Source: Oscillospiraceae bacterium
GTDB taxonomy: Bacteria; Bacillota; Clostridia; Oscillospirales; Ruminococcaceae
DNA length: 59,918 bases
Direction of reading: 5' to 3'
Assembly (NCBI GenBank): GCA_030539275.1
Contig: JAUNSK010000025.1
Coordinates: 1-59,918, forward strand
Part shown: positions 51,060-59,918 of the stretch, in pieces
Layout of the letters: the number at the start of each line of letters is the position of its first letter
How positions within the stretch are numbered: the first letter of the stretch is position 1
Notes under the pieces: generated by a model
Databases searched by the model: none
What the model was told of the DNA's origin: nothing
Seen by the model: only the letters and a program-made list of their open reading frames with translations
Program-made: the position numbers and the translations under genes

Positions 51060-51413
51060 GTGACAAGTACATTTATGGAAAGTGCAAAGAAATACTTTGA
51101 TACAGCTGCTCTTAAAACAAGCGAAGTAATAGAAATCTCCAGAAAGTACATTGATGTAAACAAAGAAGAGCGAAAACTGAATTCTCTGTATGAACGCTTT
51201 GGAAAAGCAATCTACAACACACAGAAGGATATCAGAGACGAAGAAAAACTAGCCGAAAAGCTCTACAAGGAAATAGATATCCAGAGAAACATCGTTATAG
51301 ATGCAAAAAGAAAACTTGAGGACAGCAAAGGTGTAAAATGCAGACTGTGCGGTCAGAGAAACACAAATAAAAGCCTTTTCTGTTCAAGATGCGGAGAGAT
51401 ATTGAAAAAATGA
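51060..51413 (+). CDS. Small coiled-coil protein with C-terminal zinc ribbon
   Basis: The 117-residue protein is helical and charged over residues 1-90 (ALKTSEVIEISRKYIDV, EERKLNSLYERFGKAIY), suggesting a coiled coil. It ends in a zinc ribbon CRLCGQ...CSRCGEIL. It starts at GTG 51060, 10 nt after GGGGAG; ATG 51075 is an alternative. It overlaps the rlmD start by the ATGA motif. The pattern is common among short uncharacterised Firmicutes proteins encoded next to housekeeping genes. It may bind nucleic acid or a protein complex, but no function is known. Confidence 0.75.
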   Translation: MTSTFMESAKKYFDTAALKTSEVIEISRKYIDVNKEERKLNSLYERFGKAIYNTQKDIRDEEKLAEKLYKEIDIQRNIVIDAKRKLEDSKGVKCRLCGQRNTNKSLFCSRCGEILKK

Positions 51414-52780
51414 TAAGTAAAAACCAGATCATAGAAATAGAAATCACAGGAATGACATCAGAGGGAAACGGAGTCGGCCACGCTCAGGGCATGGCCGTTT
51501 TTGTTCCCTGTACAGCAATAGGAGACAAGCTGGAGGTCAAAATAGTCAAGGTTCTTAAAAGTTACGCCTACGGTATTATTGAGAAAATACTGATCTCTTC
51601 ACCTGACAGAACACAATCAGACTGTCCTGTCTCACAGAAATGCGGCGGCTGTATGTTCAGACACATTACATACGAGGCAGAACTGAAAATAAAATCAGGC
51701 TTTATATCTGACGCATTCAAGAGAATAGGCGGCTTTGACCTTGAATATGAGTCAATAGCCGGCTGTGAAGAAACTGACTTCTACAGAAACAAGGCCCAGT
51801 ATCCGGTAGCCATGCAGGACTCAAAAGCAGTATGCGGTTTTTACTCAAGAAGAAGCCACAGAGTCGTTCCGTTTACTGCCTGCAGACTCCAGCCTCCGGT
51901 ATTCGCACAGATCGTAGACTATGTTATCGATTATATCAACGAACACCATATACCGGCATATGACGAACAGACACATAAAGGTCTGATCCGTCATATCTAT
52001 CTCAGAAAGGGATTTCACACCGGAGAAATAATGCTGTGTATCGTAGCAGCAGATAAAAAGGCTGTGAAATATGTAAGAGAGATGGTAAGCTCGACAGATA
52101 TCCTTGAAAAGTTCGGTGATATAAAATGCATTATTGTTAATGTCAATCCTGATAACACAAACGTTATTCTTGGCAGGAAGAATTTTCAGATATACGGCAG
52201 TGAAAATATCACTGATGTTATGTGCGGCAACAAAATTATGCTTTCACCTATGTCATTTTATCAGGTAAACACCTGTCAGGCAGAAAAGCTTTACAGCATT
52301 GCAGCGGGTTTTGCAGAACTCTCCGGAAACGAAAAAATTCTTGATCTTTATTGCGGGACCGGCACAATAGGGCTATCTATGCATGACAAGGTTAAGTGCT
52401 TGACAGGTGTAGAGGTCATAAATCAGGCTGTTGAGAATGCAAAAATAAATGCTCAGATAAACGGGATCGAGAATGCTGAATTTATATGCGGGGATGCAGG
52501 TACGATTGCGGACAAGATGGCAGCACAGGGGGAAAAACCTGATGTAATTATTGTGGATCCACCTAGAAAAGGATGCGACGGGAATACAATTGAAGCTATT
52601 TTAAAGATGTCTCCGTGCAAGATTGTTATGATCTCTTGTAATCCGGCTACGGCTGCAAGAGATTGCAGGATGATATGTGAGAGTGGGGAGTATGAGATAA
52701 GGAAGATTCGTGGGGTGGATCTGTTTGCACGGACGGGGCACGTGGAGAGTGTTGTCTTGATGTCACGCAAGGGCAAATAA
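51410..52780 (+). CDS. 23S rRNA (uracil-C5)-methyltransferase, RlmD type
   Basis: The 456-residue enzyme methylates a uracil of 23S rRNA (U1939 in E. coli numbering; Gram-positive relatives may also modify U747). It starts at ATG 51410, overlapping the preceding stop. Residues about 1-60 form a TRAM RNA-binding domain (SEGNGVGHAQGMAVFV), followed by an iron-sulfur cluster motif (CPVSQKCGGCMF). The methyltransferase core has LDLYCGTGTIGL for S-adenosylmethionine, DPPRKG, and the nucleophilic cysteine in MISCNPAT. It is the last gene of the operon and is followed by a terminator, which marks the end of the housekeeping region. Confidence 0.94.
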   Translation: MISKNQIIEIEITGMTSEGNGVGHAQGMAVFVPCTAIGDKLEVKIVKVLKSYAYGIIEKILISSPDRTQSDCPVSQKCGGCMFRHITYEAELKIKSGFISDAFKRIGGFDLEYESIAGCEETDFYRNKAQYPVAMQDSKAVCGFYSRRSHRVVPFTACRLQPPVFAQIVDYVIDYINEHHIPAYDEQTHKGLIRHIYLRKGFHTGEIMLCIVAADKKAVKYVREMVSSTDILEKFGDIKCIIVNVNPDNTNVILGRKNFQIYGSENITDVMCGNKIMLSPMSFYQVNTCQAEKLYSIAAGFAELSGNEKILDLYCGTGTIGLSMHDKVKCLTGVEVINQAVENAKINAQINGIENAEFICGDAGTIADKMAAQGEKPDVIIVDPPRKGCDGNTIEAILKMSPCKIVMISCNPATAARDCRMICESGEYEIRKIRGVDLFARTGHVESVVLMSRKGK

Positions 52781-52804
52781 AGTGCCGAAGAACGGCTAAA
52801 ATAA

Positions 52805-52855
52805 GGGGTTTCTGGTATCGGGCTGCTGACTGCCGGATGTCGGAAATCCCTTTTT
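52805..52855 (+). terminator. Terminator of the recJ-rlmD operon
   Basis: GGGGTTTC (52805-52812) pairs with GAAATCCC (52843-52850), with a smaller CGG/CCG stem inside, followed by five Ts. Confidence 0.75.
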
Positions 52856-52894
52856 GTTTATCTGTCAGAACCTATCTATTGTTTAATAGGTGGT

Positions 52895-52973
52895 AGGGTT
52901 GAGTTGACAGGACTGTTTTTTGATAGGTTGTGTTGATAGGACTGATATTTAGTGGGTTGAGTTGACAACATTG
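52895..52973. repeat. Three imperfect 29-bp direct repeats
   Basis: A 19-bp core GGTTGAGTTGACAGGACTG occurs at 52897, 52926 (two changes) and 52955 (end diverged), at an exact 29-bp period. No gene covers it. It lies between the last housekeeping terminator and the controller promoter of the defence island, in an otherwise empty 314-bp gap. Confidence 0.75.
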
Positions 52974-53027
52974 TTTGCTGAAATGGACACATATAGTCCC
53001 TTCATATTCAACTGCAATCATTACAGA

Positions 53028-53075
53028 TTGACAATTTCAACTTAAAGTTTTATAATAAAAAGCGTGAAGTTGAAA
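53028..53075 (+). promoter_or_regulatory. Controller promoter with embedded inverted-repeat operator
   Basis: TTGACA (53028-53033) and TATAAT (53051-53056) have a 17-bp spacer. TTTCAACTT (53035-53043) in the spacer and AAGTTGAAA (53067-53075) past the start site are perfect 9-bp inverted repeats. AACTT-A-AAGTT (53039-53049) is a second, nested palindrome. This is a typical autoregulated restriction-modification controller promoter. Confidence 0.75.
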
Positions 53076-53094
53076 TTAGAAAGAGGTACCGTAT

Positions 53095-53304
53095 ATGAAT
53101 ATATCAGAACAAATAAAGGTGCTTTGTGTGCGTAGTAATATCAGCGTATCAGAGTTGGCACGAAGAGTTGGTACTTCTCCTCAAAATTTTAATGCAAAAT
53201 TGAAGAGAGAGAGTTTTACTATTTCAGATTTAGAACAGATAGCAGAAGCTACTGATAGTTCATTTGAAAGAAAGTTCGTATTAAATAATGGGGAGAATGT
53301 CTAA
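53095..53304 (+). CDS. Small XRE-family controller protein
   Basis: The 69-residue protein is almost entirely a Cro/C1-type helix-turn-helix (residues 5-60: SVSELARRVGTSPQNFNAKLKRESFTISDLEQIAEA). It starts at ATG 53095 after AAAGAGG. The stop TAA shares its last base with the methyltransferase ATG (TAATG), so the two are coupled. Size, position and the inverted-repeat operator match C proteins of restriction-modification systems, which delay nuclease expression until DNA is methylated. It could also act simply as a repressor of the whole island. Confidence 0.88.
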   Translation: MNISEQIKVLCVRSNISVSELARRVGTSPQNFNAKLKRESFTISDLEQIAEATDSSFERKFVLNNGENV

Positions 53305-54494
53305 TGAGCAATAAATATAAAGAGTATTATGATAACCGAGATGTAATCTCCTTGTTTTCAGGCGCAATGGGGCTTGATATAGGTTTGGGAAAAGCTGGAT
53401 TGAATGTTGTGATCGGACAGGATTTTGAGAAAACCTGTGTGGAAACAATGAAAGCCAACGGGCATAACGTACTTGGTGGAGATATTCGTGAAATCCAGCC
53501 GCAGACCTTACTCGATATGACAGGTCTTAAAGTAGGAGAACCATTTTTGATTTGTGGGGGACCGCCTTGTCAGCCATTCTCCACAGCTGGTAAAAGACTG
53601 GGAATCAATGATCCCCGTGGCAGTTTGTTTATGGATTTTATCCGAATGATTGATTATATTCGTCCGAGATTTTTTGTGATGGAGAATGTGAAAGGCATTA
53701 TGTCAGCACCACTAAAGCACGTCCCATATGAAGAAAGAAGCGACACAGACCCGGAACAAAAATTAGGAACTGTCTTGGATGTAATCTTATCTGAGTTTAA
53801 GAAATTAGGATATAAAACAGTTTACGGAGTATTGGATGCCGTGAATTATGGTGTTCCGCAGTTCCGTGAAAGGTTTGTATTAATTGGTAGCAGAGATGAT
53901 GAAGATATTTTCCTTCCGATTCCAACTAATTTTCAGATGCATCAGAACCCGGAATGCCGATGGAAAACGGTGGGAGAAGTCATCAGAGGATTGGAGAATG
54001 ACGGAAGTGACTGCGCACCTCTCAGCGAAGAACGTAAGAAGTATTTACACATGGTTCCGGAAGGTGGGAACTGGAAAGACCTGCCGAAAGAAATAATCCC
54101 GATAGCAATGGGTGGAGCCTATGAATCCGGCGGCGGAAAAGTAGGATTCTATCGTAGGCTTTCATACAGTCAGCCGTCACCGACCGTTGTTACTTCTCCA
54201 GTGCAGAAAGCAACCATGATGTGCCATCCTGTTCTGGACAGACCTTTGAGTTTGACTGAGTACGCTCGCATACAGCAATTCCCGGATGATTGGATTTTTG
54301 TTGGGACGGTAGCTGCAAAATATCGTCAGATTGGTAATGCAGTTCCAGTAGGTCTGGCAGAAGCAATCGGAAAGTCAATTATTTCAACAGCTGATAAAAC
54401 TTCTACCATCGTATCGAAAAGATTTAGAGGTACGGCTGTTCACAGCAAGATTAAGAATGCATTAGAATTGGGAGGAAGTACCTATGGCAATTAA
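53304..54494 (+). CDS. DNA (cytosine-5) methyltransferase
   Basis: The 396-residue protein has the ordered motifs of 5-methylcytosine methyltransferases: motif I LFSGAMGLDIGL, motif IV GGPPCQPFSTAG with the catalytic Cys, motif VI ENVKG, motif VIII QFRERFVLIG, and motif X GNAVPVGLAEAIGKS. The target-recognition region lies between VIII and IX (residues about 205-320). An insert between motifs VI and VIII (ERSDTDPEQK) is modest. It protects host DNA from the endonuclease encoded next, which it overlaps by 11 bp. The recognition sequence cannot be read from the protein. Confidence 0.96.
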   Translation: MSNKYKEYYDNRDVISLFSGAMGLDIGLGKAGLNVVIGQDFEKTCVETMKANGHNVLGGDIREIQPQTLLDMTGLKVGEPFLICGGPPCQPFSTAGKRLGINDPRGSLFMDFIRMIDYIRPRFFVMENVKGIMSAPLKHVPYEERSDTDPEQKLGTVLDVILSEFKKLGYKTVYGVLDAVNYGVPQFRERFVLIGSRDDEDIFLPIPTNFQMHQNPECRWKTVGEVIRGLENDGSDCAPLSEERKKYLHMVPEGGNWKDLPKEIIPIAMGGAYESGGGKVGFYRRLSYSQPSPTVVTSPVQKATMMCHPVLDRPLSLTEYARIQQFPDDWIFVGTVAAKYRQIGNAVPVGLAEAIGKSIISTADKTSTIVSKRFRGTAVHSKIKNALELGGSTYGN

Positions 54495-55224
54495 TAATTC
54501 ATACGATGAGAAAGAGGTAGTGAAAGCAATCGCTACTGCGTTGGAGACTTTTTACGGAACCTTGATTGAAAAAATCGACGGGCTTAATATCCAGAAAGTG
54601 ATGAAAAGAAAGAATCCTTATCTGTACCGAGCAAAGGCAATGGAGAGTGCATCTGAGATTGTTGAATCAGTACTGACTGCATTTGTCAGTTCCAGCGAGG
54701 AGACAATCTTTGGAAATTGCTTCTTTGAGCCGATTGCGATTGCAGCCAGTGGTGGAAATAAGGCACTTGCAGAAGGAATCGACATCATGATTCAGGATAA
54801 TGAAGCAAATGTCATTTCTGCCATCGCAGTTAAGAGTGGGCCTTCTGTTTTTAATGCAGACAGTAAGAAAAGACAGGAGCAAAACTTCATGGCTGCATCG
54901 AAACTGGCGCAGCAGGCTAAGGCGAGATATGAAGCTTATATTGGCTATTGCTATGGTAAGAAAAAGGATAGCGGTCGTGGCAAGCCGAAGATGTATCGGG
55001 AACTTGCAGGTAAGCAGTTCTGGCAGGAAATCACAGGCGATGAAGATTTTTATAAGAAGATTATTACATACATGGGTACTATGCCAGAACAGTATGTGTC
55101 AGAATATAAAGAAAGCTACAGCAAGGCAGCAAATCGCCTTGTGAGAGAGTTTTCAAACAGCTTCTGTAAGGAAGATGGCAGCATTGATTGGGAACAGCTG
55201 GTAGAATTTAATTCTGGTGATTAA
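54484..55224 (+). CDS. PmeII-family type II restriction endonuclease
   Basis: The 246-residue protein follows the methyltransferase with an overlapping start and a GGGAGG site. It shows NPYLYRAKAMESASEIVESVL and FFEPIAIAASGG near the middle. The PD-(D/E)xK-like core is GIDIMIQDN...ISAIAVKSGPSVFNADSKKRQEQNF, where the final acidic position reads V before K, as in several members. This resembles the PmeII family in my memory. No helicase or specificity subunit is present, so it is a simple type II enzyme. The cleavage site is unknown. A 54-nt gap separates it from the next gene, the widest gap in the island. Confidence 0.8.
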   Translation: MAINNSYDEKEVVKAIATALETFYGTLIEKIDGLNIQKVMKRKNPYLYRAKAMESASEIVESVLTAFVSSSEETIFGNCFFEPIAIAASGGNKALAEGIDIMIQDNEANVISAIAVKSGPSVFNADSKKRQEQNFMAASKLAQQAKARYEAYIGYCYGKKKDSGRGKPKMYRELAGKQFWQEITGDEDFYKKIITYMGTMPEQYVSEYKESYSKAANRLVREFSNSFCKEDGSIDWEQLVEFNSGD

Positions 55225-55278
55225 TTGGAATAGTACCATGTAAAAAGATAGAAATGGCTTGAAGGAGGACAGCAGTTT

Positions 55279-56277
55279 ATGCGTGTATTCAACTATGCTT
55301 CTTATGCCCGGACACTTGAGCTGGGAATTTCAAAACCGAATATGACAAAAATTGCAAAGGCCTTGTTCGAGCCAGTCATTAGCATGGACACCGTTCTAAA
55401 CAGGAATGGCAATCCATACACGATTACACCTACAAGGGCTAAGTCGTGGTGGGAACAGACGAGTGACATACCGGGTAACATAAAAATCGCCACAGGAACG
55501 CCAGAGTTAATCAACAGTATTGGAGAATATTTTAACGAAAACATCATTGATGGACTGATTAACCAGATGCTTGAATCGCAAATGTACTCGGCAATGGTCA
55601 CACTTGTAAGAGATTCAGATTTGCAGAAAAATGAGATTGATGAATTACTCCAGTATTATGAAGAAAAGGATAATGACGAGTTTCTTGGACGTGCTTTCCT
55701 TTATGCAGTTGCCAAAGATAACCTCCAGAAAGATGCGGCCACTGTTGAAACACCGATAGATGCAGATATCAGAACATTTAAGGAATTAATCAAAAAGAGT
55801 CACAAGAAACCTGTAAGCATCACACCGCCAGATGAAATCGAGGATCACGAATTAGGTTATGTACAGGAGCTGTACCATGTCTACCATGAGGAAACGGGTG
55901 AGGAATATGCTCGACCTTCTGATTTGGATTCACAGCCGAAGCTAAAAAAGAATTTCAATCGCCAACGCAAGGACTATTATTGTGCAGAAACTATACATAG
56001 AGAATTGAGAGATACGATTCGATTGGATGAAACAGAGGGATTTGATATCTTAAAGGATGAGATGTTTGATGGTGTCATCACAACCTGTGAGAAAGATTAT
56101 GATAGCAGTCTGCAAAGGCTGACCGCCGTTATGGAACACGCTACAGGCGTTCCTATTTCACATAATTTACAAGACCGAATGCTTGATTGGGTTGGCCCCG
56201 GAGAAAAGAAGGGCGTTTGCCATATGCTGGTAAATGATAATCGCCTTACATGGATGGAGGATGATGACGATGATTGA
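55279..56277 (+). CDS. Third component of an ABC-3C-type system
   Basis: The 332-residue protein begins MRVFNYASYARTLELGISK after GGAGG (55264-55268). Residues about 1-150 are helical with no motif I recognise. The C-terminal 100 residues (YYCAETIHRELRDTIRLDETEGFDILKDEMFDGVITT then a helical RLTAVMEHATGV) fit the helical C-terminal domains that link third components of ABC-3C systems to their ATPase. It ends in a run of Asp. It overlaps the middle component by 8 bp. In described ABC-3C systems the third component carries the effector at its N-terminus; here the N-terminal region would be that part, with unknown activity. Assignment rests on context plus this pattern. Confidence 0.6.
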   Translation: MRVFNYASYARTLELGISKPNMTKIAKALFEPVISMDTVLNRNGNPYTITPTRAKSWWEQTSDIPGNIKIATGTPELINSIGEYFNENIIDGLINQMLESQMYSAMVTLVRDSDLQKNEIDELLQYYEEKDNDEFLGRAFLYAVAKDNLQKDAATVETPIDADIRTFKELIKKSHKKPVSITPPDEIEDHELGYVQELYHVYHEETGEEYARPSDLDSQPKLKKNFNRQRKDYYCAETIHRELRDTIRLDETEGFDILKDEMFDGVITTCEKDYDSSLQRLTAVMEHATGVPISHNLQDRMLDWVGPGEKKGVCHMLVNDNRLTWMEDDDDD

Positions 56278-56719
56278 TAGTAAATTATTTAATTCTCCAT
56301 TTGAAATGGAACTCAGGATGCTGTTGCTTCTCTCTGCAAATGCGAAAACAGCATACACAGTAGACAGAATAGTGGCACTTGATTTCATTTCCTGTTATGC
56401 AGCTGATTTTAGTCTTCCGTATGGTAATCTTCACGGACAGAACAACTATAAATACGGAGAAATCTCGAACAGACGAATGCTTGTTCAAGAGGCGGTCAAA
56501 GCATCGGTAACCAAAGGATTAGTTAATGTAGTAATCGACCGTGGTTACCTTTTTGCAATTTCTGAACAGGGGCTAAAATACATACGGAAACTCAAGGATG
56601 CGTATGCTTCTGAGTATAAAACGATTGCAAAAGCAGCTGTGAAAAAATACAGAAAGGACAGTGACGAGGATATTCTTGCATCAATACAGTCTTTTTCCTT
56701 AAGGTCACTCAAGGGATAA
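56270..56719 (+). CDS. ABC-3C middle component (MC2-like)
   Basis: The 149-residue protein starts at ATG 56270, 9 nt after GGAGG and inside the end of the third component. The opening SKLFNSPFEMELRMLLLLS, then VDRIVALDFISCYAADF, LHGQNNYKYGEISNRR and LVQEAVKASVTKGLV are the pattern I recall for middle component 2, a winged-helix-like adaptor between the ATPase and the effector. The wing region DRGYLFAISEQGLKYI follows. It is directly joined (4 nt) to the Rad50-like ATPase gene. Confidence 0.75.
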   Translation: MIDSKLFNSPFEMELRMLLLLSANAKTAYTVDRIVALDFISCYAADFSLPYGNLHGQNNYKYGEISNRRMLVQEAVKASVTKGLVNVVIDRGYLFAISEQGLKYIRKLKDAYASEYKTIAKAAVKKYRKDSDEDILASIQSFSLRSLKG

Positions 56720-56723
56720 TGGT

Positions 56724-58520
56724 ATGTTTTACATTAAGAGAATCTCCCTTCTTACAGGCGGCAATGTTACTTCAACATTGGATTTGGAGTCGGGACTGAA
56801 TATCATATATGGAGAGTCCAATACAGGAAAAAGTCTGATAGTGGATTGTATAGATTATATGTTCGGAGCAACCGAACATCGTTTTGATGCGAAACTGCAG
56901 ATTAAGCAGATTACGATGGTGCTGGATGTTGATGGCAAAAATCTGACAATGCGCCGCGAGATTGACAGTAATGATTTTGAGGTATCCAGTTCTGTTGATT
57001 ACATTGATAGTGATACATATAAAACGGGAAATGCTAAAAAATGTATCAATGCAGTATGGCTTCGCTTAATGGGAATTGAAGATGAAGTTAAGATTATCCA
57101 GACCCTTACGGGTAAACCACAGCGATTAACACTACGCACCTTTTATCATACTCTTCTCATAGATGAACAGAGAGTTCAGGCAATCAGCAGTGTGTTGGCA
57201 TCTAGCATTGGATTTAATAAGAAGGTAGGTGTGCCAGTTCTGTCCTCTTTGTTATATTTTGCGACAGGTAACAATTATCTGCCGGAGAAAGCTGGGAAAG
57301 ATAAAAAGACAAAGAGTGAACGTAAGGATGCCGTTAAGAAATTTGTGGACAGGAGTATGTCTAAATTAGCCGAAAGAAAGGTATCAGAGCTTCAGAATTT
57401 TTCTGAAGAAACACCTGCTCAATTGCAGAAAAAGATAGATTCTGTTATTGATGAGATTGGTGCAGTGGAAGGTGCTTTAGAGGAAGCAACGAACCGAAGC
57501 CGTGATATTGCTGATAAGATTATTGCCATAGATGACCAGATTTCCGAGTCTCGTGTGTTGCGAAATCGTAATACATCACTTTTGTCGCAGTATGAATCTG
57601 ACATTAAGCGTTTGACTTTCATAGCGGATGGCGATATTCATAGTGAAAGCATTATGAAATTGGATCACTGCCCATTCTGCAACGGAGAACTACCAAAGGA
57701 TAAGGAAGAATCCTGTATTGATGCTGCTATTGCAGAGGTCAAAAAAATTGAAGCACAGATAAAAGATTTGCAGTCTGTGCAGGAAGCAATTTCCAGCGAA
57801 ATGGAAGAATTGAACGAAGCAAGGCTTTCACTGATGGCAGAGAGACGCCAAGTGGACTCAATGATTAGAGGAGAACTTCGCCCGCAAATCATACAGCTTC
57901 GGAGTCATCTTGCGGATTATACGATGGTGTTGAATCAATACAAAGCAAAAGAAATGATTGAAGCATTCAGCGATGTATTAGTTGGAGAACTGAAAGTAAC
58001 GGAGGAAGAAGAATCCTCTACACTTCAGATAAATATTCCCGGAAAATTCAATGATATATTCCATGACAAACTGGAGCGAATTCTTAAGGAATTATTGGAA
58101 GTATGCAATTACCAGCGCTTTGCAGGAGTTCGATTTGATACAGATGATTGTGATGTAGTTGTTAATGGTCACTTGAAGAAAAGCCAAGGAAAAGGTTTCA
58201 GAGCGTTCCTCAATACAATCCTTGCTATTGCGGTACAGAATTGCCTTGATGAATTTAATCTGTACAAGCCTCAAATGCTGGTGGTTGATTCCCCTATTCT
58301 TTCGCTTAAAGAAAAAGAGGATCATATCGGAGAAGAGCATACATCTGAAACAATGAAGAGCGGGTTATTCAAATACCTGTTGAAACATCAGAATACGCGC
58401 CAAACGATTATTATAGAGAACGATATCCCAGAAATTGATTATGAAACCGCTCATCTTATTGAATTTACAAAAGATGAAAATAGAGGTAGATATGGTCTGA
58501 TAACAGGATATCGGGATTAA
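56724..58520 (+). CDS. Rad50/SMC-like ATPase (DUF3732 type) of the ABC-3C system
   Basis: The 598-residue protein has an ABC ATPase head split by coiled coils. The N-terminus has Walker A YGESNTGKSLIVDCIDY. The middle has a long coiled coil (about 200-400) with a CPFCNGEL zinc-hook-like turn near residue 315. The C-terminus has a signature-like KKSQGKGFRAFLNTILAI and Walker B QMLVVDSPIL, with SLKEKE after it. This is the layout of DUF3732/Rad50-like ATPases that power ABC-3C systems. It should dimerise at DNA ends or altered DNA and signal to the other two components. It is the last gene of the island and is followed by a terminator. Confidence 0.82.
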   Translation: MFYIKRISLLTGGNVTSTLDLESGLNIIYGESNTGKSLIVDCIDYMFGATEHRFDAKLQIKQITMVLDVDGKNLTMRREIDSNDFEVSSSVDYIDSDTYKTGNAKKCINAVWLRLMGIEDEVKIIQTLTGKPQRLTLRTFYHTLLIDEQRVQAISSVLASSIGFNKKVGVPVLSSLLYFATGNNYLPEKAGKDKKTKSERKDAVKKFVDRSMSKLAERKVSELQNFSEETPAQLQKKIDSVIDEIGAVEGALEEATNRSRDIADKIIAIDDQISESRVLRNRNTSLLSQYESDIKRLTFIADGDIHSESIMKLDHCPFCNGELPKDKEESCIDAAIAEVKKIEAQIKDLQSVQEAISSEMEELNEARLSLMAERRQVDSMIRGELRPQIIQLRSHLADYTMVLNQYKAKEMIEAFSDVLVGELKVTEEEESSTLQINIPGKFNDIFHDKLERILKELLEVCNYQRFAGVRFDTDDCDVVVNGHLKKSQGKGFRAFLNTILAIAVQNCLDEFNLYKPQMLVVDSPILSLKEKEDHIGEEHTSETMKSGLFKYLLKHQNTRQTIIIENDIPEIDYETAHLIEFTKDENRGRYGLITGYRD

Positions 58521-58536
58521 TAAAGATTCTGCTACG

Positions 58537-58570
58537 GAGTCATTCACATTATGTGGGTGGCTCTTTTTTT
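58537..58570 (+). terminator. Terminator of the defence island
   Basis: GAGTCATTCACAT (58537-58549) pairs with ATGTGGGTGGCTC (58551-58563) with several G-T pairs, followed by seven Ts. Confidence 0.75.
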
Positions 58571-58671
58571 ATGCCCTTTTTTAACTATATTCGAACTGTA
58601 TTTCACCTATATTCCATGTCGATTACAGATTTCCAATTTTCAAGTATAGTAAGGACAGGCTTCAGTAAGCC

Positions 58672-58860
58672 ACTCCTCGAAAGAGGAAAAAAATCTCACA
58701 GCCTGAGATGCGCATTAAGGCGGCGGGATACATAGTAGGTTTGAACACAGAGCATATCTGTGGACAAGCCGATGATGTACCCACCGTGTCTTGTCATGCC
58801 ATTTTCAGGTGCAGGAGTCGGTGGACACATAAATCCATCGGCTCCTTTTATGTTCCTGCC
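58672..58860 (+). ncRNA. Structured non-coding leader upstream of the sigma-like gene
   Basis: Three elements follow each other. A GNRA-capped hairpin CCTC-GAAA-GAGG lies at 58675-58686, followed by A7. A small hairpin TCTCA-N5-TGAGA spans 58694-58708. A long-range pairing joins GCCGATG (58768-58774) and CCACCG (58781-58786) with CGGTGG (58819-58824) and CATCGGC (58836-58842). GCAGGA/TCCTGC (58811-58816, 58854-58859) is a competing pair. No open frame with a ribosome-binding site covers the segment. It may be a cis-acting RNA or a part of the transfer or replication region of the mobile element. Confidence 0.4.
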
Positions 58861-58893
58861 GCCACCATCCGGGCGGAAAGGCAGGGATTTCAG

Positions 58894-59376
58894 ATGAGGA
58901 AATTCAAGACAGCGGAAAAGAACCGTACAAATTATGTTTATTACACAGCAGATGACAAGAAGATTGTTCTGACCCCGGAGGATGTAGACAGTGACTGGAT
59001 TGCGTTTTTACACGGAGAAGATGATGAATCCGTGGATGCAGACCGCAGGGAGGATTATCACGTTCCTGTTCATTACGATGCTTACTCTGATGGTGAGGGC
59101 GATGATGCAGCAGACCGTAACGCTTACATGGAGGATGATGCACCTAATCCCCTTGAAAGTCTGATTCAGTCTGTGGATGAGGCAGAACATGAGGACAAGC
59201 TGGAAAGATTGAAAGCAGCGATTCAGACATTACAACCACAGCAGATTGCCTTGATTCAAAAGGTGTTTTATGAAAACCGCACCAACGTGGATATAGCAGC
59301 AGAAGAGGATGTCACAGAAGCGGCAATCCGTAATCGTCTGAAGAAGATTTATACAAACCTCGCAAAAAAGATTTGA
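58894..59376 (+). CDS. Sigma-70 region 4-like regulator of a mobile element
   Basis: The 160-residue protein starts at ATG 58894 after GCAGGG; a longer in-frame extension upstream covers the structured region and is rejected. The N-terminal half is acidic (KKIVLTPEDVDSDWIAFLHGEDDESVDADRREDYH). The C-terminal half has a sigma-70 region 4-type helix-turn-helix (LKAAIQTLQPQQIALIQKVFYENRTNVDIAAEEDVTEAAIRNRLKKIY). Proteins of this kind are common at the start of conjugative elements and phages of Clostridia and probably control element genes. Base composition here is richer in G+C than the island before it. Confidence 0.8.
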   Translation: MRKFKTAEKNRTNYVYYTADDKKIVLTPEDVDSDWIAFLHGEDDESVDADRREDYHVPVHYDAYSDGEGDDAADRNAYMEDDAPNPLESLIQSVDEAEHEDKLERLKAAIQTLQPQQIALIQKVFYENRTNVDIAAEEDVTEAAIRNRLKKIYTNLAKKI

Positions 59377-59377
59377 T

Positions 59378-59400
59378 TCCGGGGGTTCGATTCCCTGCTC
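59378..59400 (+). other. tRNA T-arm-like fragment
   Basis: TTCCGGGGGTTCGATTCCCTGCT resembles the T-arm region of a tRNA (GGTTCGATTCC core). There is no anticodon or D-arm upstream, because the sigma-like coding region ends only a few bases before. It could be an attachment-site remnant or a chance resemblance. Confidence 0.25.
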
Positions 59401-59457
59401 CTTTTGGCTTATAGACAGAGGGGCAGGAAAAGAACCTCTCGGAAAGGAGCTGTTGAT

Positions 59458-59685
59458 ATGGCAGTAAAACACAAAGTCACAATCAATATCTCTGATGCAA
59501 GCGGCGGAAAATCCACGGTCTTGCGAGGTGCGAATATGAAACTCCCGGCAAGAATCATTCGATTCCTGTTTGGAGATTTCACACAGGTGTACCTCTTAAA
59601 ACCGGGACAGACCGTAGACTCCGTGGATGTCAGAGAAATCAAGGAAGGAGGTAGACTTCATGAACAAAGTCACAGCAATGCTTGA
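59458..59685 (+). CDS. Small mobile-element protein, unknown function
   Basis: The 75-residue basic protein starts at ATG 59458, preceded by AAAGGAG. It opens MAVKHKVTINISDASGG and contains KLPARIIRFLFGDFTQVYLLKPG. Short proteins of this kind occur with the sigma-like gene in conjugative elements or phages, but I cannot assign a role. Its last codons overlap the next start (59660) by 26 bp, with GGAGG for that gene inside its own coding sequence. Confidence 0.7.
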   Translation: MAVKHKVTINISDASGGKSTVLRGANMKLPARIIRFLFGDFTQVYLLKPGQTVDSVDVREIKEGGRLHEQSHSNA

Positions 59686-59918
59686 TGCAGCAGTTGCGGT
59701 CATTACCGACATTCGTTCTTTAGCAGACAGCCTGCAGATTCTTGTAGATGCAATGTCAGCGAACAGCGAGGAAGAAAAACAGCCCACAAAGAAGGCTGCA
59801 CCAAAGAAAAAGGCAACCGAAGAGCCTAAGCCGGAACCACAGCCGGAGGAAGAAAAGCCGCTGACTCTGGAAGATGTCAGAGCCGTGTGTGCGGATAAAT
59901 CCCGCAAAGGCTTTACGG
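59660..59918 (+). CDS. Mobile-element rrp5-like protein, cut by window edge
   Basis: The frame starts at ATG 59660 after AGGAGG and is open for 86 codons to the end of the window, so the protein is incomplete here. It starts MNKVTAMLDAAVAVITDIRSL, then a Lys/Pro/Glu-rich linker (EEEKQPTKKAAPKKKA, EEPKPEPQPEEEKPL) and LEDVRAVCADKSRKG. The linker plus LEDVR-A-KSR motif is what I recall from the small phage and conjugative-element proteins annotated as rrp5-like. The linker resembles that family; a link to rRNA biogenesis is not supported by the sequence. Confidence 0.65.
   Translation, partial: MNKVTAMLDAAVAVITDIRSLADSLQILVDAMSANSEEEKQPTKKAAPKKKATEEPKPEPQPEEEKPLTLEDVRAVCADKSRKGFT

What the first reader, a model, noticed from the sequence alone, without database searches (positions are those of the whole stretch)
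53095..58520. Type II restriction-modification joined to an ABC-3C-type system in one apparent operon
Six genes in one orientation read: controller, 5mC methyltransferase, PmeII-like nuclease, then third component, middle component and Rad50-like ATPase. Junctions are TAATG, an 11-bp overlap, a 54-nt gap, an 8-bp overlap and a 4-nt gap. There is one promoter at the front and one terminator at the back, and no obvious internal promoter. R-M and ABC-3C systems are each known, but as far as I know not as one transcription unit under a shared C protein. The R-M half could cut incoming DNA and the ATPase could sense the resulting ends and trigger the effector, making a two-stage defence.
Basis: partly seen in the sequence, partly recalled or inferred. 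Interest (0 to 1): 0.8.

Follow-up and report, generated by a model that had tools for sequence, protein, structure and literature searches.

The report
Swappable restriction module fronting Lamassu defence
A three-gene bacterial anti-phage system called Lamassu sits in one apparent operon behind a DNA-cutting restriction system, and most of its closest relatives keep the same layout with a different cutting system in front, which suggests that cutting the invader's DNA and the follow-up response work as a pair, although this has not been tested.

Summary
Six genes lie in one direction with the stated junctions, behind a perfect sigma-70 promoter, before a strong terminator, with no promoter or terminator match in the 54-nt gap. 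The first half is a type II R-M of the EcoO109I/PmeII family with a small HTH gene; the second is Lamassu (ABC-3C).

New here: a relative (L013) whose Lamassu proteins are 93-99% identical shares the DNA on both sides but has an unrelated R-M module between. The switch point lies 27 nt before LmuA. In a nine-member LmuB clade, 7 of 9 have a restriction module upstream on the same strand, all different (EcoO109I-like, 5mC/N6 fusion plus REase, LlaJI, BglII-like, Mrr-helicase, GmrSD, type I), six with gaps of 21-59 nt. What they share is predicted DNA cutting, not a protein family.

Against: R-M is common in this phage family without Lamassu (10 of 32 loci, versus 23 of 38 with it). None of 10 loci with this nuclease shows Lamassu. 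Two clade gaps hold weak promoter-like matches, and two front regions lack a strong one. DNA-end sensing between the halves is inference. New variant of a known kind.

The parts
52739..52765 (+). att-like core at the 3' end of a gene (51389-52780) that I read, by recall, as an rRNA uracil-5 methyltransferase: left edge of the mobile element
   Evidence: Identity with L013 starts here, where the preceding L013 DNA does not match. A similar stretch in G000:C42 (76% over 207 nt) precedes what reads as a serine-recombinase fragment. No second copy with up to 3 mismatches in the own genome.
52896..52981 (+). three 28-nt direct repeats at 29-nt spacing, in the left flank shared with L013
53028..53056 (+). 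sigma-70 promoter, TTGACA-17-TATAAT, 12 of 12
   Evidence: 0 of 2000 base shuffles of the 159 nt upstream of C reach 12
53033..53077 (+). inverted repeat (22-nt arms, 82% complementary) over the -10 element: candidate operator
   Evidence: binding not tested
53095..53304 (+). 69-aa Cro/C1-type HTH_26 protein, candidate controller
   Evidence: 74% identical homologue in front of the related M-R pair in L006
53304..54494 (+). 5-methylcytosine DNA methyltransferase
   Evidence: PF00145 5e-68
54484..55224 (+). type II restriction endonuclease, EcoO109I/PmeII family
   Evidence: PF14511 3e-68; D100 and K117 invariant in 7 of 7 aligned
55225..55278 (+). 54-nt gap holding the module switch point (DNA shared with L013 starts at 55252) and the LmuA ribosome-binding site (AAGGAGG 55262-55268)
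55279..56277 (+). LmuA: CTD6 C-terminal domain; N-terminal part modelled as all-helical, no enzyme recognised
56270..56719 (+). LmuC (middle component MC2)
   Evidence: PF20288 5e-38; PADLOC LmuC
56724..58520 (+). LmuB, Rad50-like ATPase: Walker A GESNTGKS, zinc hook CPFC, Walker B DSP without the catalytic Glu (motif names by recall and from the review)
   Evidence: PADLOC LmuB 1e-161; alignment of 8
58536..58564 (+). intrinsic terminator; by eye a hairpin and T-run also follow LmuB in the six other clade loci printed
   Evidence: only the window's was folded
58708..59917 (+). first genes of the carrier phage-like element (sigma-like ORF, phrog_7234, phrog_408); in L012 DUF2800 and DNA polymerase A follow

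Best explanation
This is a Lamassu (ABC-3C) defence system carried at the edge of an integrated phage-like element. It is transcribed behind a restriction module that can be exchanged as a cassette. Shown by sequence: the cassette swap with shared flanks, the lack of a promoter match in the window's junction, and seven unrelated restriction modules in the same place in one LmuB clade. Inferred: one transcript under the HTH_26 protein (about 80% likely; lowered from 85% on re-check, because two front regions in the clade lack a strong promoter match and two gaps hold weak ones). Inferred, with less confidence: the front module cuts unmodified invading DNA, and LmuB, a Rad50-like DNA-end or DNA-structure sensor, responds to cut DNA that is not cleared by releasing LmuA, whose helical N-terminal domain then stops the cell or the phage by an unknown action (about 40% likely). 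The argument for this step is that the only property shared by all seven partners is predicted DNA breakage.
For: Swap: window and L013 share 52739-52978 (86%) and 55252-59918 (88%) and have no blastn match between. Seven module types: window PF14511; L013 PF00145+Eco57I fusion plus REase_II (1e-125); L014 LlaJI; L015 Mrr_cat+ResIII; L016 N6_N4 MTase+BglII-like+SNF2; L017 GmrSD; L012 HsdRSM. Gaps from the last gene of the module to LmuA 54, 59, 48, 22, 21, 33 and 416 nt, in that order. All seven fall in one nine-row LmuB group, support 100/100, root drawn at the midpoint only. No promoter match of 8 of 12 or better in the gap plus the preceding 100 nt in window, L013, L015, L016. Lamassu DNA-end or hairpin sensing and LmuA release are reported in papers read in passages. 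Precedents: a small regulator over R-M plus another system (RptR abstract); a Rad50-like break-activated effector (RloC passages).
Against: R-M is frequent in the same phage family without Lamassu: 10 of 32 loci against 23 of 38 with Lamassu, Fisher p=0.018, a modest difference. L026, inside the clade, has no R-M match in 9 kb upstream; L044 is cut by its contig end. Elsewhere in the family R-M (8 loci) or BREX (1 locus) lies 3' of LmuB instead. Promoter-like matches lie at or in the gap of L014 (9 of 12) and L017 (10 of 12, its -10 only 3 nt before the start codon); in front of the module L013 has only 8 of 12 and L016 none. In L015 and L016 the gene next to LmuA is not itself a recognised nuclease. 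L012 has a 416-nt gap and may be transcribed apart. A successful cut would itself trigger the second stage, a cost the model must explain. No RNA or phage data.
Confidence: 0.5

Rival explanations
1. Co-carriage in a defence hotspot: the edge of this phage family collects defence genes, Lamassu simply sits downstream of whatever landed there and borrows its promoter, and the proteins do not act on each other.
For: R-M in 10 of 32 Lamassu-free loci of the phage family; Lamassu next to BREX in L075; a related C-M-R next to Hachiman in L006; no Lamassu in 10 of 10 loci examined with the nuclease.
Against: In the closest clade position and direction are kept with seven different module types, six with short gaps, which needs at least six exchanges or independent gains; excess over Lamassu-free loci, p=0.018.
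Confidence: 0.35
2. Guardian model like PrrC: Lamassu watches the restriction enzyme and fires when a phage inhibits it.
For: PrrC is held silent by its linked type Ic R-M and released by a phage anti-restriction peptide (passages).
Against: Seven unrelated restriction modules are unlikely to share one surface that Lamassu could hold (inference); clade member L026 has none.
Confidence: 0.08
3. The helical LmuA domain is an adaptor that recruits the neighbouring restriction nuclease as the effector of Lamassu.
For: No catalytic domain recognised in this LmuA; the model has no strand of 3 or more residues.
Against: The partner nucleases are unrelated to each other, and L026 keeps a homologous LmuA (50% identical) without one.
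Confidence: 0.05
4. Two separate transcription units that only happen to be close.
For: The 54-nt gap is larger than the other junctions; a 10-of-12 promoter-like site lies at 54439-54468 inside M, before R; weak promoter-like matches at the gaps of L014 and L017.
Against: No promoter-like site of 8 of 12 or better and no terminator in the window's gap; DNA shared with L013 begins 27 nt before LmuA, too short for a promoter.
Confidence: 0.1

Closest known systems
Lamassu type II / ABC-3C / DdmABC
   Same: LmuA-LmuC-LmuB order, CTD and MC Pfam families, Rad50-like LmuB with zinc hook and a lost Walker B Glu (review passages and section 9)
   Different: LmuA N-terminal domain is all-helical in the model rather than a recognised enzyme; no promoter match at the junction behind a swappable restriction module
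EcoO109I / PmeII-family type II R-M
   Same: MTase plus PF14511 nuclease; D100 and K117 invariant in 7 of 7
   Different: Followed by a second defence system; the position two before the Lys is Ala here and Ser or Thr in the three plasmid relatives, where PD-(D/E)XK enzymes have an acid; small HTH_26 gene in front
RloC and PrrC
   Same: ABC-ATPase effectors tied to DNA breaks or to R-M; RloC resembles Rad50 and is switched on with linear DNA (passages)
   Different: No anticodon-nuclease domain found here; RloC is reported as only rarely linked to R-M
RptR-controlled island (type I R-M with embedded DarTG2)
   Same: Small regulator and one promoter over R-M plus another defence system (abstract)
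   Different: Toxin-antitoxin instead of Lamassu; I saw only the abstract and outline, which name no module swap
Nuclease-protease pairs added to Lamassu, Hachiman and Avs
   Same: A partner nuclease gene recurrently placed upstream of LmuA (passages)
   Different: There one nuclease family activated by a fused protease; here whole unrelated restriction systems, no protease found in LmuA

Membership tests
Lamassu (ABC-3C) | LmuB: SMC/Rad50-like ATPase | tested here: met
   PADLOC LmuB 1e-161
Lamassu (ABC-3C) | Middle component and third component with an ABC-3C C-terminal domain | tested here: met
   MC2 5e-38, CTD6 1e-43
Lamassu (ABC-3C) | Zinc hook and loss of the Walker B Glu | tested here: met
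   C316-P-F-C319 and D522-S523 invariant in 8 of 8; the usual change is Glu to Gln, here Ser
Lamassu (ABC-3C) | Catalytic effector domain at the LmuA N-terminus | tested here: inconclusive
   No Pfam, PDB-sequence or significant fold match; best AF2 model all-helical, pLDDT 83.6, pTM 0.49, but only 2 of 5 models above 60
Lamassu (ABC-3C) | Anti-phage or anti-plasmid activity | not testable with these tools
   needs phage assays
Type II R-M, EcoO109I family | MTase with adjacent family nuclease | tested here: met
   PF00145 and PF14511
Type II R-M, EcoO109I family | Intact PD-(D/E)XK site | tested here: inconclusive
   D100 and K117 invariant in 7 of 7, middle position Ala/Ser/Thr; no PDB sequence hit at E<=0.01
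C-protein-controlled R-M | Small HTH protein binding an operator at the R-M promoter | tested here: inconclusive
   HTH_26 gene and inverted repeat over the promoter present; binding untested
RloC/PrrC | Anticodon-nuclease domain | tested here: not met
   No such domain named in the Pfam, PADLOC or NCBIfam scans
Single operon | No promoter or terminator match at the R-LmuA junction, terminator at the end | tested here: met
   three terminator-like matches inside LmuA and LmuB remain
Single operon | Continuous transcript | not testable with these tools
   no RNA data

The most novel reading that the evidence does not exclude
Lamassu of this clade is a portable second stage that accepts any DNA-cutting restriction system as its first stage: type I, several type II, type IV and Mrr-type modules are plugged into one slot in front of it, and DNA ends are the common signal handed on.
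Probability: 0.35. Interest if true: 0.82.

Novelty: new variant of a known kind. Interest (0 to 1): 0.63.

Why it matters
How defence systems cooperate is mostly inferred from loose clustering in islands. Here one Lamassu type keeps its place behind seven unrelated restriction modules, and two near-identical Lamassus (window and L013) have different modules in front. That is a natural swap experiment: if Lamassu reads DNA ends, it should work with any cutter. It could also help to find what triggers Lamassu, and it gives a set of matched cassettes to test. In the paper searches no listed title or start of abstract described such units. Some of these lists were cut short (25 shown of 27, 15 of 127, 15 of 32, 15 of 56), I read passages, one section or an abstract of eight papers only, and the ABC-3C survey and a Lamassu structure paper were not held. 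So absence from print is not shown.

Tried and rejected
Rejected or dropped. (1) The idea that this exact R-M/Lamassu pair is conserved: 0 of 10 loci examined with the nuclease show Lamassu. (2) The idea that R-M linkage alone proves coupling: Lamassu-free loci of the phage family carry R-M in 10 of 32. The R-M reference set came from my own loci, so the count was made leave-one-out; it then misses L015-L017, which do carry restriction genes. (3) LmuA effector by fold: best PDB match is a Salmonella LmuA at E 0.86, not significant; best viral match E 0.90. (4) A second att copy in the own genome: none with up to 3 mismatches.

What was given to the counts. Census of 38: the window; 8 of the 12 loci, 19 loci, of which L058 and L060 repeat L012 and L026 (both kept once) and L074 was dropped as cut, 16 others kept, L040, L041, L043, L044, L046, L085-L088; L007 and L008, that is 2 of the 107 plasmid records. 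Dropped: repeats of one contig, loci cut or lacking LmuA (L002/L018/L048, L003), fragments (L004/L049, L005, L022-L024), four matches under Pfam's cut-off (L035-L038). L042, L045, L047 and L089, whose LmuA I took for the Cap4 nuclease kind by recall, were listed apart. LmuA kinds of the others were set by tblastn likeness, not by Pfam scans. L059 and L087 (LmuA only) and L088 (cut) were kept; LmuB of L062 and L007 holds a stop. Controls: 26 of the 38 DUF2800 places (left out: one with Lamassu, partial or weak matches, contig ends) plus 6 places. Tree: 36 loci given, L062 and L007 dropped by the script for the stop, 34 rows used; L059, L074, L087-L089, L042, L045, L047 were not given.
Full report
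What is there. The six ORFs, their direction and all five junctions are as described. Pfam and PADLOC name them HTH_26, 5mC methyltransferase, EcoO109I-family nuclease, then LmuA (CTD6), LmuC (MC2) and LmuB. 'ABC-3C' and 'Lamassu' are names within one superfamily according to a review of which I read passages and section 9 (PMC10586767). A perfect promoter (53028-53056) with an inverted repeat over its -10 element (53033-53077) stands before the first gene, and a hairpin with z -5.3 and a T-run follows the last. Between the nuclease and LmuA there is a good ribosome-binding site but no promoter-like or terminator-like match. Inside the operon the scan also gives one 10-of-12 promoter-like match before R and three terminator-like matches in LmuA and LmuB; I take them as chance but cannot exclude them.

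The element. Upstream lies a gene that I read as an rRNA uracil methyltransferase (51389-52780, by recall; not scanned). Bases near its end, 52739-52765, reappear in L013 in front of the same flank but after unmatched DNA, as expected for an attachment core. A similar left end in contig C42 of the same genome is followed by what reads as a serine recombinase fragment. Downstream come a sigma-like ORF and phrog_7234/phrog_408 genes; in L012 DUF2800 and DNA polymerase A follow, and look-alike ORFs are seen in L013, L015 and L026. The cassette therefore seems to sit at the edge of an integrated phage-like element. The contig ends at 59918, so the rest of the element was not seen.

The swap. Searches with LmuB and LmuA brought relatives whose LmuB is 95, 81, 76, 65, 50, 44 and 43% identical. 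Aligning L013 with the window shows identity on both sides, 52739-52978 and 55252-59918, and no match between: the window holds C-M-R, L013 an HTH_26 gene, a fused 5mC/N6 methyltransferase and a REase_II of 404 aa. The right switch point is 27 nt before the LmuA start; in L014 and L012 the alignments also begin inside the gap (window 55234 and 55259), in L015 just inside LmuA. Conversely, the homology of the window's C-M-R with L006 ends at the stop codon of R, after which L006 goes on with HamA and a helicase, that is Hachiman. Restriction modules here thus appear to move as cassettes with borders in the intergenic gaps.

One clade, seven cutters. In an LmuB tree of 34 rows (drawn with a midpoint root), one group with 100/100 support holds nine rows: window, L012-L017, L026, L044. 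Seven of the nine have a restriction module upstream on the same strand, and no two are alike: EcoO109I-like (window), 5mC/N6 fusion plus REase_II (L013), LlaJI with two methyltransferases (L014), Mrr-helicase plus an unmatched 234-aa protein (L015), N4/N6 methyltransferase plus BglII-like nuclease, an unmatched protein, SNF2 helicase and NOV_C protein (L016), GmrSD (L017), type I (L012). Gaps from the last gene of the cluster to LmuA are 54, 59, 48, 22, 21, 33 and, for L012, 416 nt. L026 has no R-M match upstream, and L044 cannot be judged because its contig starts 184 nt before LmuA. L059, which has LmuA alone and is not in the tree, has an HTH-methyltransferase fusion and McrBC-type genes 90 nt in front.

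Promoters in the clade. With a lax scan, the gap plus the preceding 100 nt holds no match of 8 of 12 or better in window, L013, L015 and L016, a 9-of-12 in L014, a 10-of-12 in L017 whose -10 is 3 nt before the start codon, and 9-of-12 in L012, L026 and L059; shuffles of the window's stretch give 9 or better in 18% and 10 or better in 3%. In front of the first gene the window has 12, L014 and L059 have 11, L013 has 8 and L016 no match (all). So the claim that every module brings a strong promoter is not borne out by pattern alone.

Wider family and control. Among 38 loci with CTD6 Lamassu taken as the non-Cap4 kind, 15 have R-M in an unbroken same-strand chain with gaps up to 120 nt: 7 upstream of LmuA and 8 downstream of LmuB, the latter all type I and, in 7 of 8, with a small HTH-like gene between; one more has BREX there. 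Counted without regard to strand or gap and leave-one-out, R-M was found in 23 of 38 Lamassu loci and in 10 of 32 Lamassu-free loci of the same phage family (p=0.018). Baseline R-M is therefore high and the excess modest; some Lamassu loci are near relatives of each other; six of the 32 control stretches are shorter than 10 kb (the other 26 give 8 of 26, p=0.024). In the family-level survey LmuB matches are rare: 5 of 297 genomes at E<=0.001, the window's own included. Plasmid records with LmuB-like matches number 107, all under 60% identity; I looked at two.

The nuclease half. Relatives of the nuclease were found in 13 plasmid records, one phage-collection record and six IMG/VR contigs. None of the 10 loci that I examined (3 of the 13 plasmid records plus the other seven) shows Lamassu, though L056 ends 0.4 kb, L057 1.5 kb and L006 2.3 kb after the gene. 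So the pairing of this R-M with Lamassu looks like one draw among many.

LmuA. The C-terminal CTD6 is clear. The N-terminal part gave no Pfam match and a best AF2 model without any strand of three residues (pLDDT 81-96 over the first 140 residues, pTM 0.49; only 2 of the 5 models were confident). The effector domains listed in the review (nucleases, proteases, hydrolases, TIR, SIR2) contain beta sheets as far as I recall, so this domain is probably a different, helical effector. Fold searches found nothing significant. The N-terminal domains of the other branch align poorly with it, and I did not model them.

Mechanism. Shown: cassette exchange, conserved position and direction, no promoter match at the window's junction. 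Inferred: the front module supplies transcription for both parts. Since methyltransferases, regulators and enzyme families all change while predicted DNA cutting stays, a signal made by cutting is the simplest common factor. Lamassu has been described as sensing hairpins or DNA ends and as releasing LmuA on activation (passages of PMC10586767, PMC12904381 and PMC12409362). RloC offers a precedent for a Rad50-like effector switched on by DNA breaks, though it is reported as only rarely linked to R-M and as active in R-M-deficient mutants (PMC3874168 passages). RptR offers one for a small regulator over R-M plus a second system (PMC12255303 abstract). The weak point is that successful restriction would itself raise the alarm; a threshold (ends that persist because degradation fails) would be needed.

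Verdict. I rate it a new variant of a known kind, with the functional link unproven.

Noticed in passing
L006:530-5523: Vsr, then a related C-M-R (68-76% identical), then HamA and a helicase (Hachiman) with the HamA start 17 nt after the R stop: this kind of R-M joined to another defence system.
   Followed up: partly
L075:10891-17753: LmuB followed by an HTH_26-like gene and BrxA, BrxB, BrxC on the same strand with gaps of 2-46 nt: Lamassu joined to BREX.
   Followed up: partly
L061-L063, L085, L086, L020, L041, L065, L066: Other Lamassu branches with type I R-M 3' of LmuB, mostly with a small HTH-like gene between; in L061 the HsdM reading frame is interrupted, in L062 LmuB holds a stop.
   Followed up: partly
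window 52896-52981; L013:282-363; L157:3278-3481: 28-nt direct repeats next to the att-like core, also recognisable in L013 and in a second element remnant of the same genome; possible recombinase sites.
   Followed up: no
L013 (JAQVBQ010000018.1): Contig titled Bacteroidales MAG, but its Lamassu and phage genes are 88% identical in DNA to this window, and the next named relatives (L014, L015) are Roseburia and Lachnospiraceae: perhaps a mis-binned phage contig.
   Followed up: no
L059:3387-9155: HTH_26 fused to a 5mC methyltransferase, then AAA_5 and McrBC-type genes, then LmuA without LmuC or LmuB, followed by a DUF2800 fragment.
   Followed up: no
L049:9449-10585: A 378-aa ORF with an LmuA-like start and the last part of LmuB: looks like an internal deletion remnant.
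   Followed up: no
window 54484-55224, residues 115-117: Nuclease motif reads A-V-K where PD-(D/E)XK enzymes have an acidic residue; the three plasmid relatives aligned have Ser or Thr there.
   Followed up: partly
window 56138-56150, 56859-56879, 57553-57576: Terminator-like matches on the + strand inside LmuA and LmuB; the region has 13 such matches on both strands against 5.2 expected.
   Followed up: no
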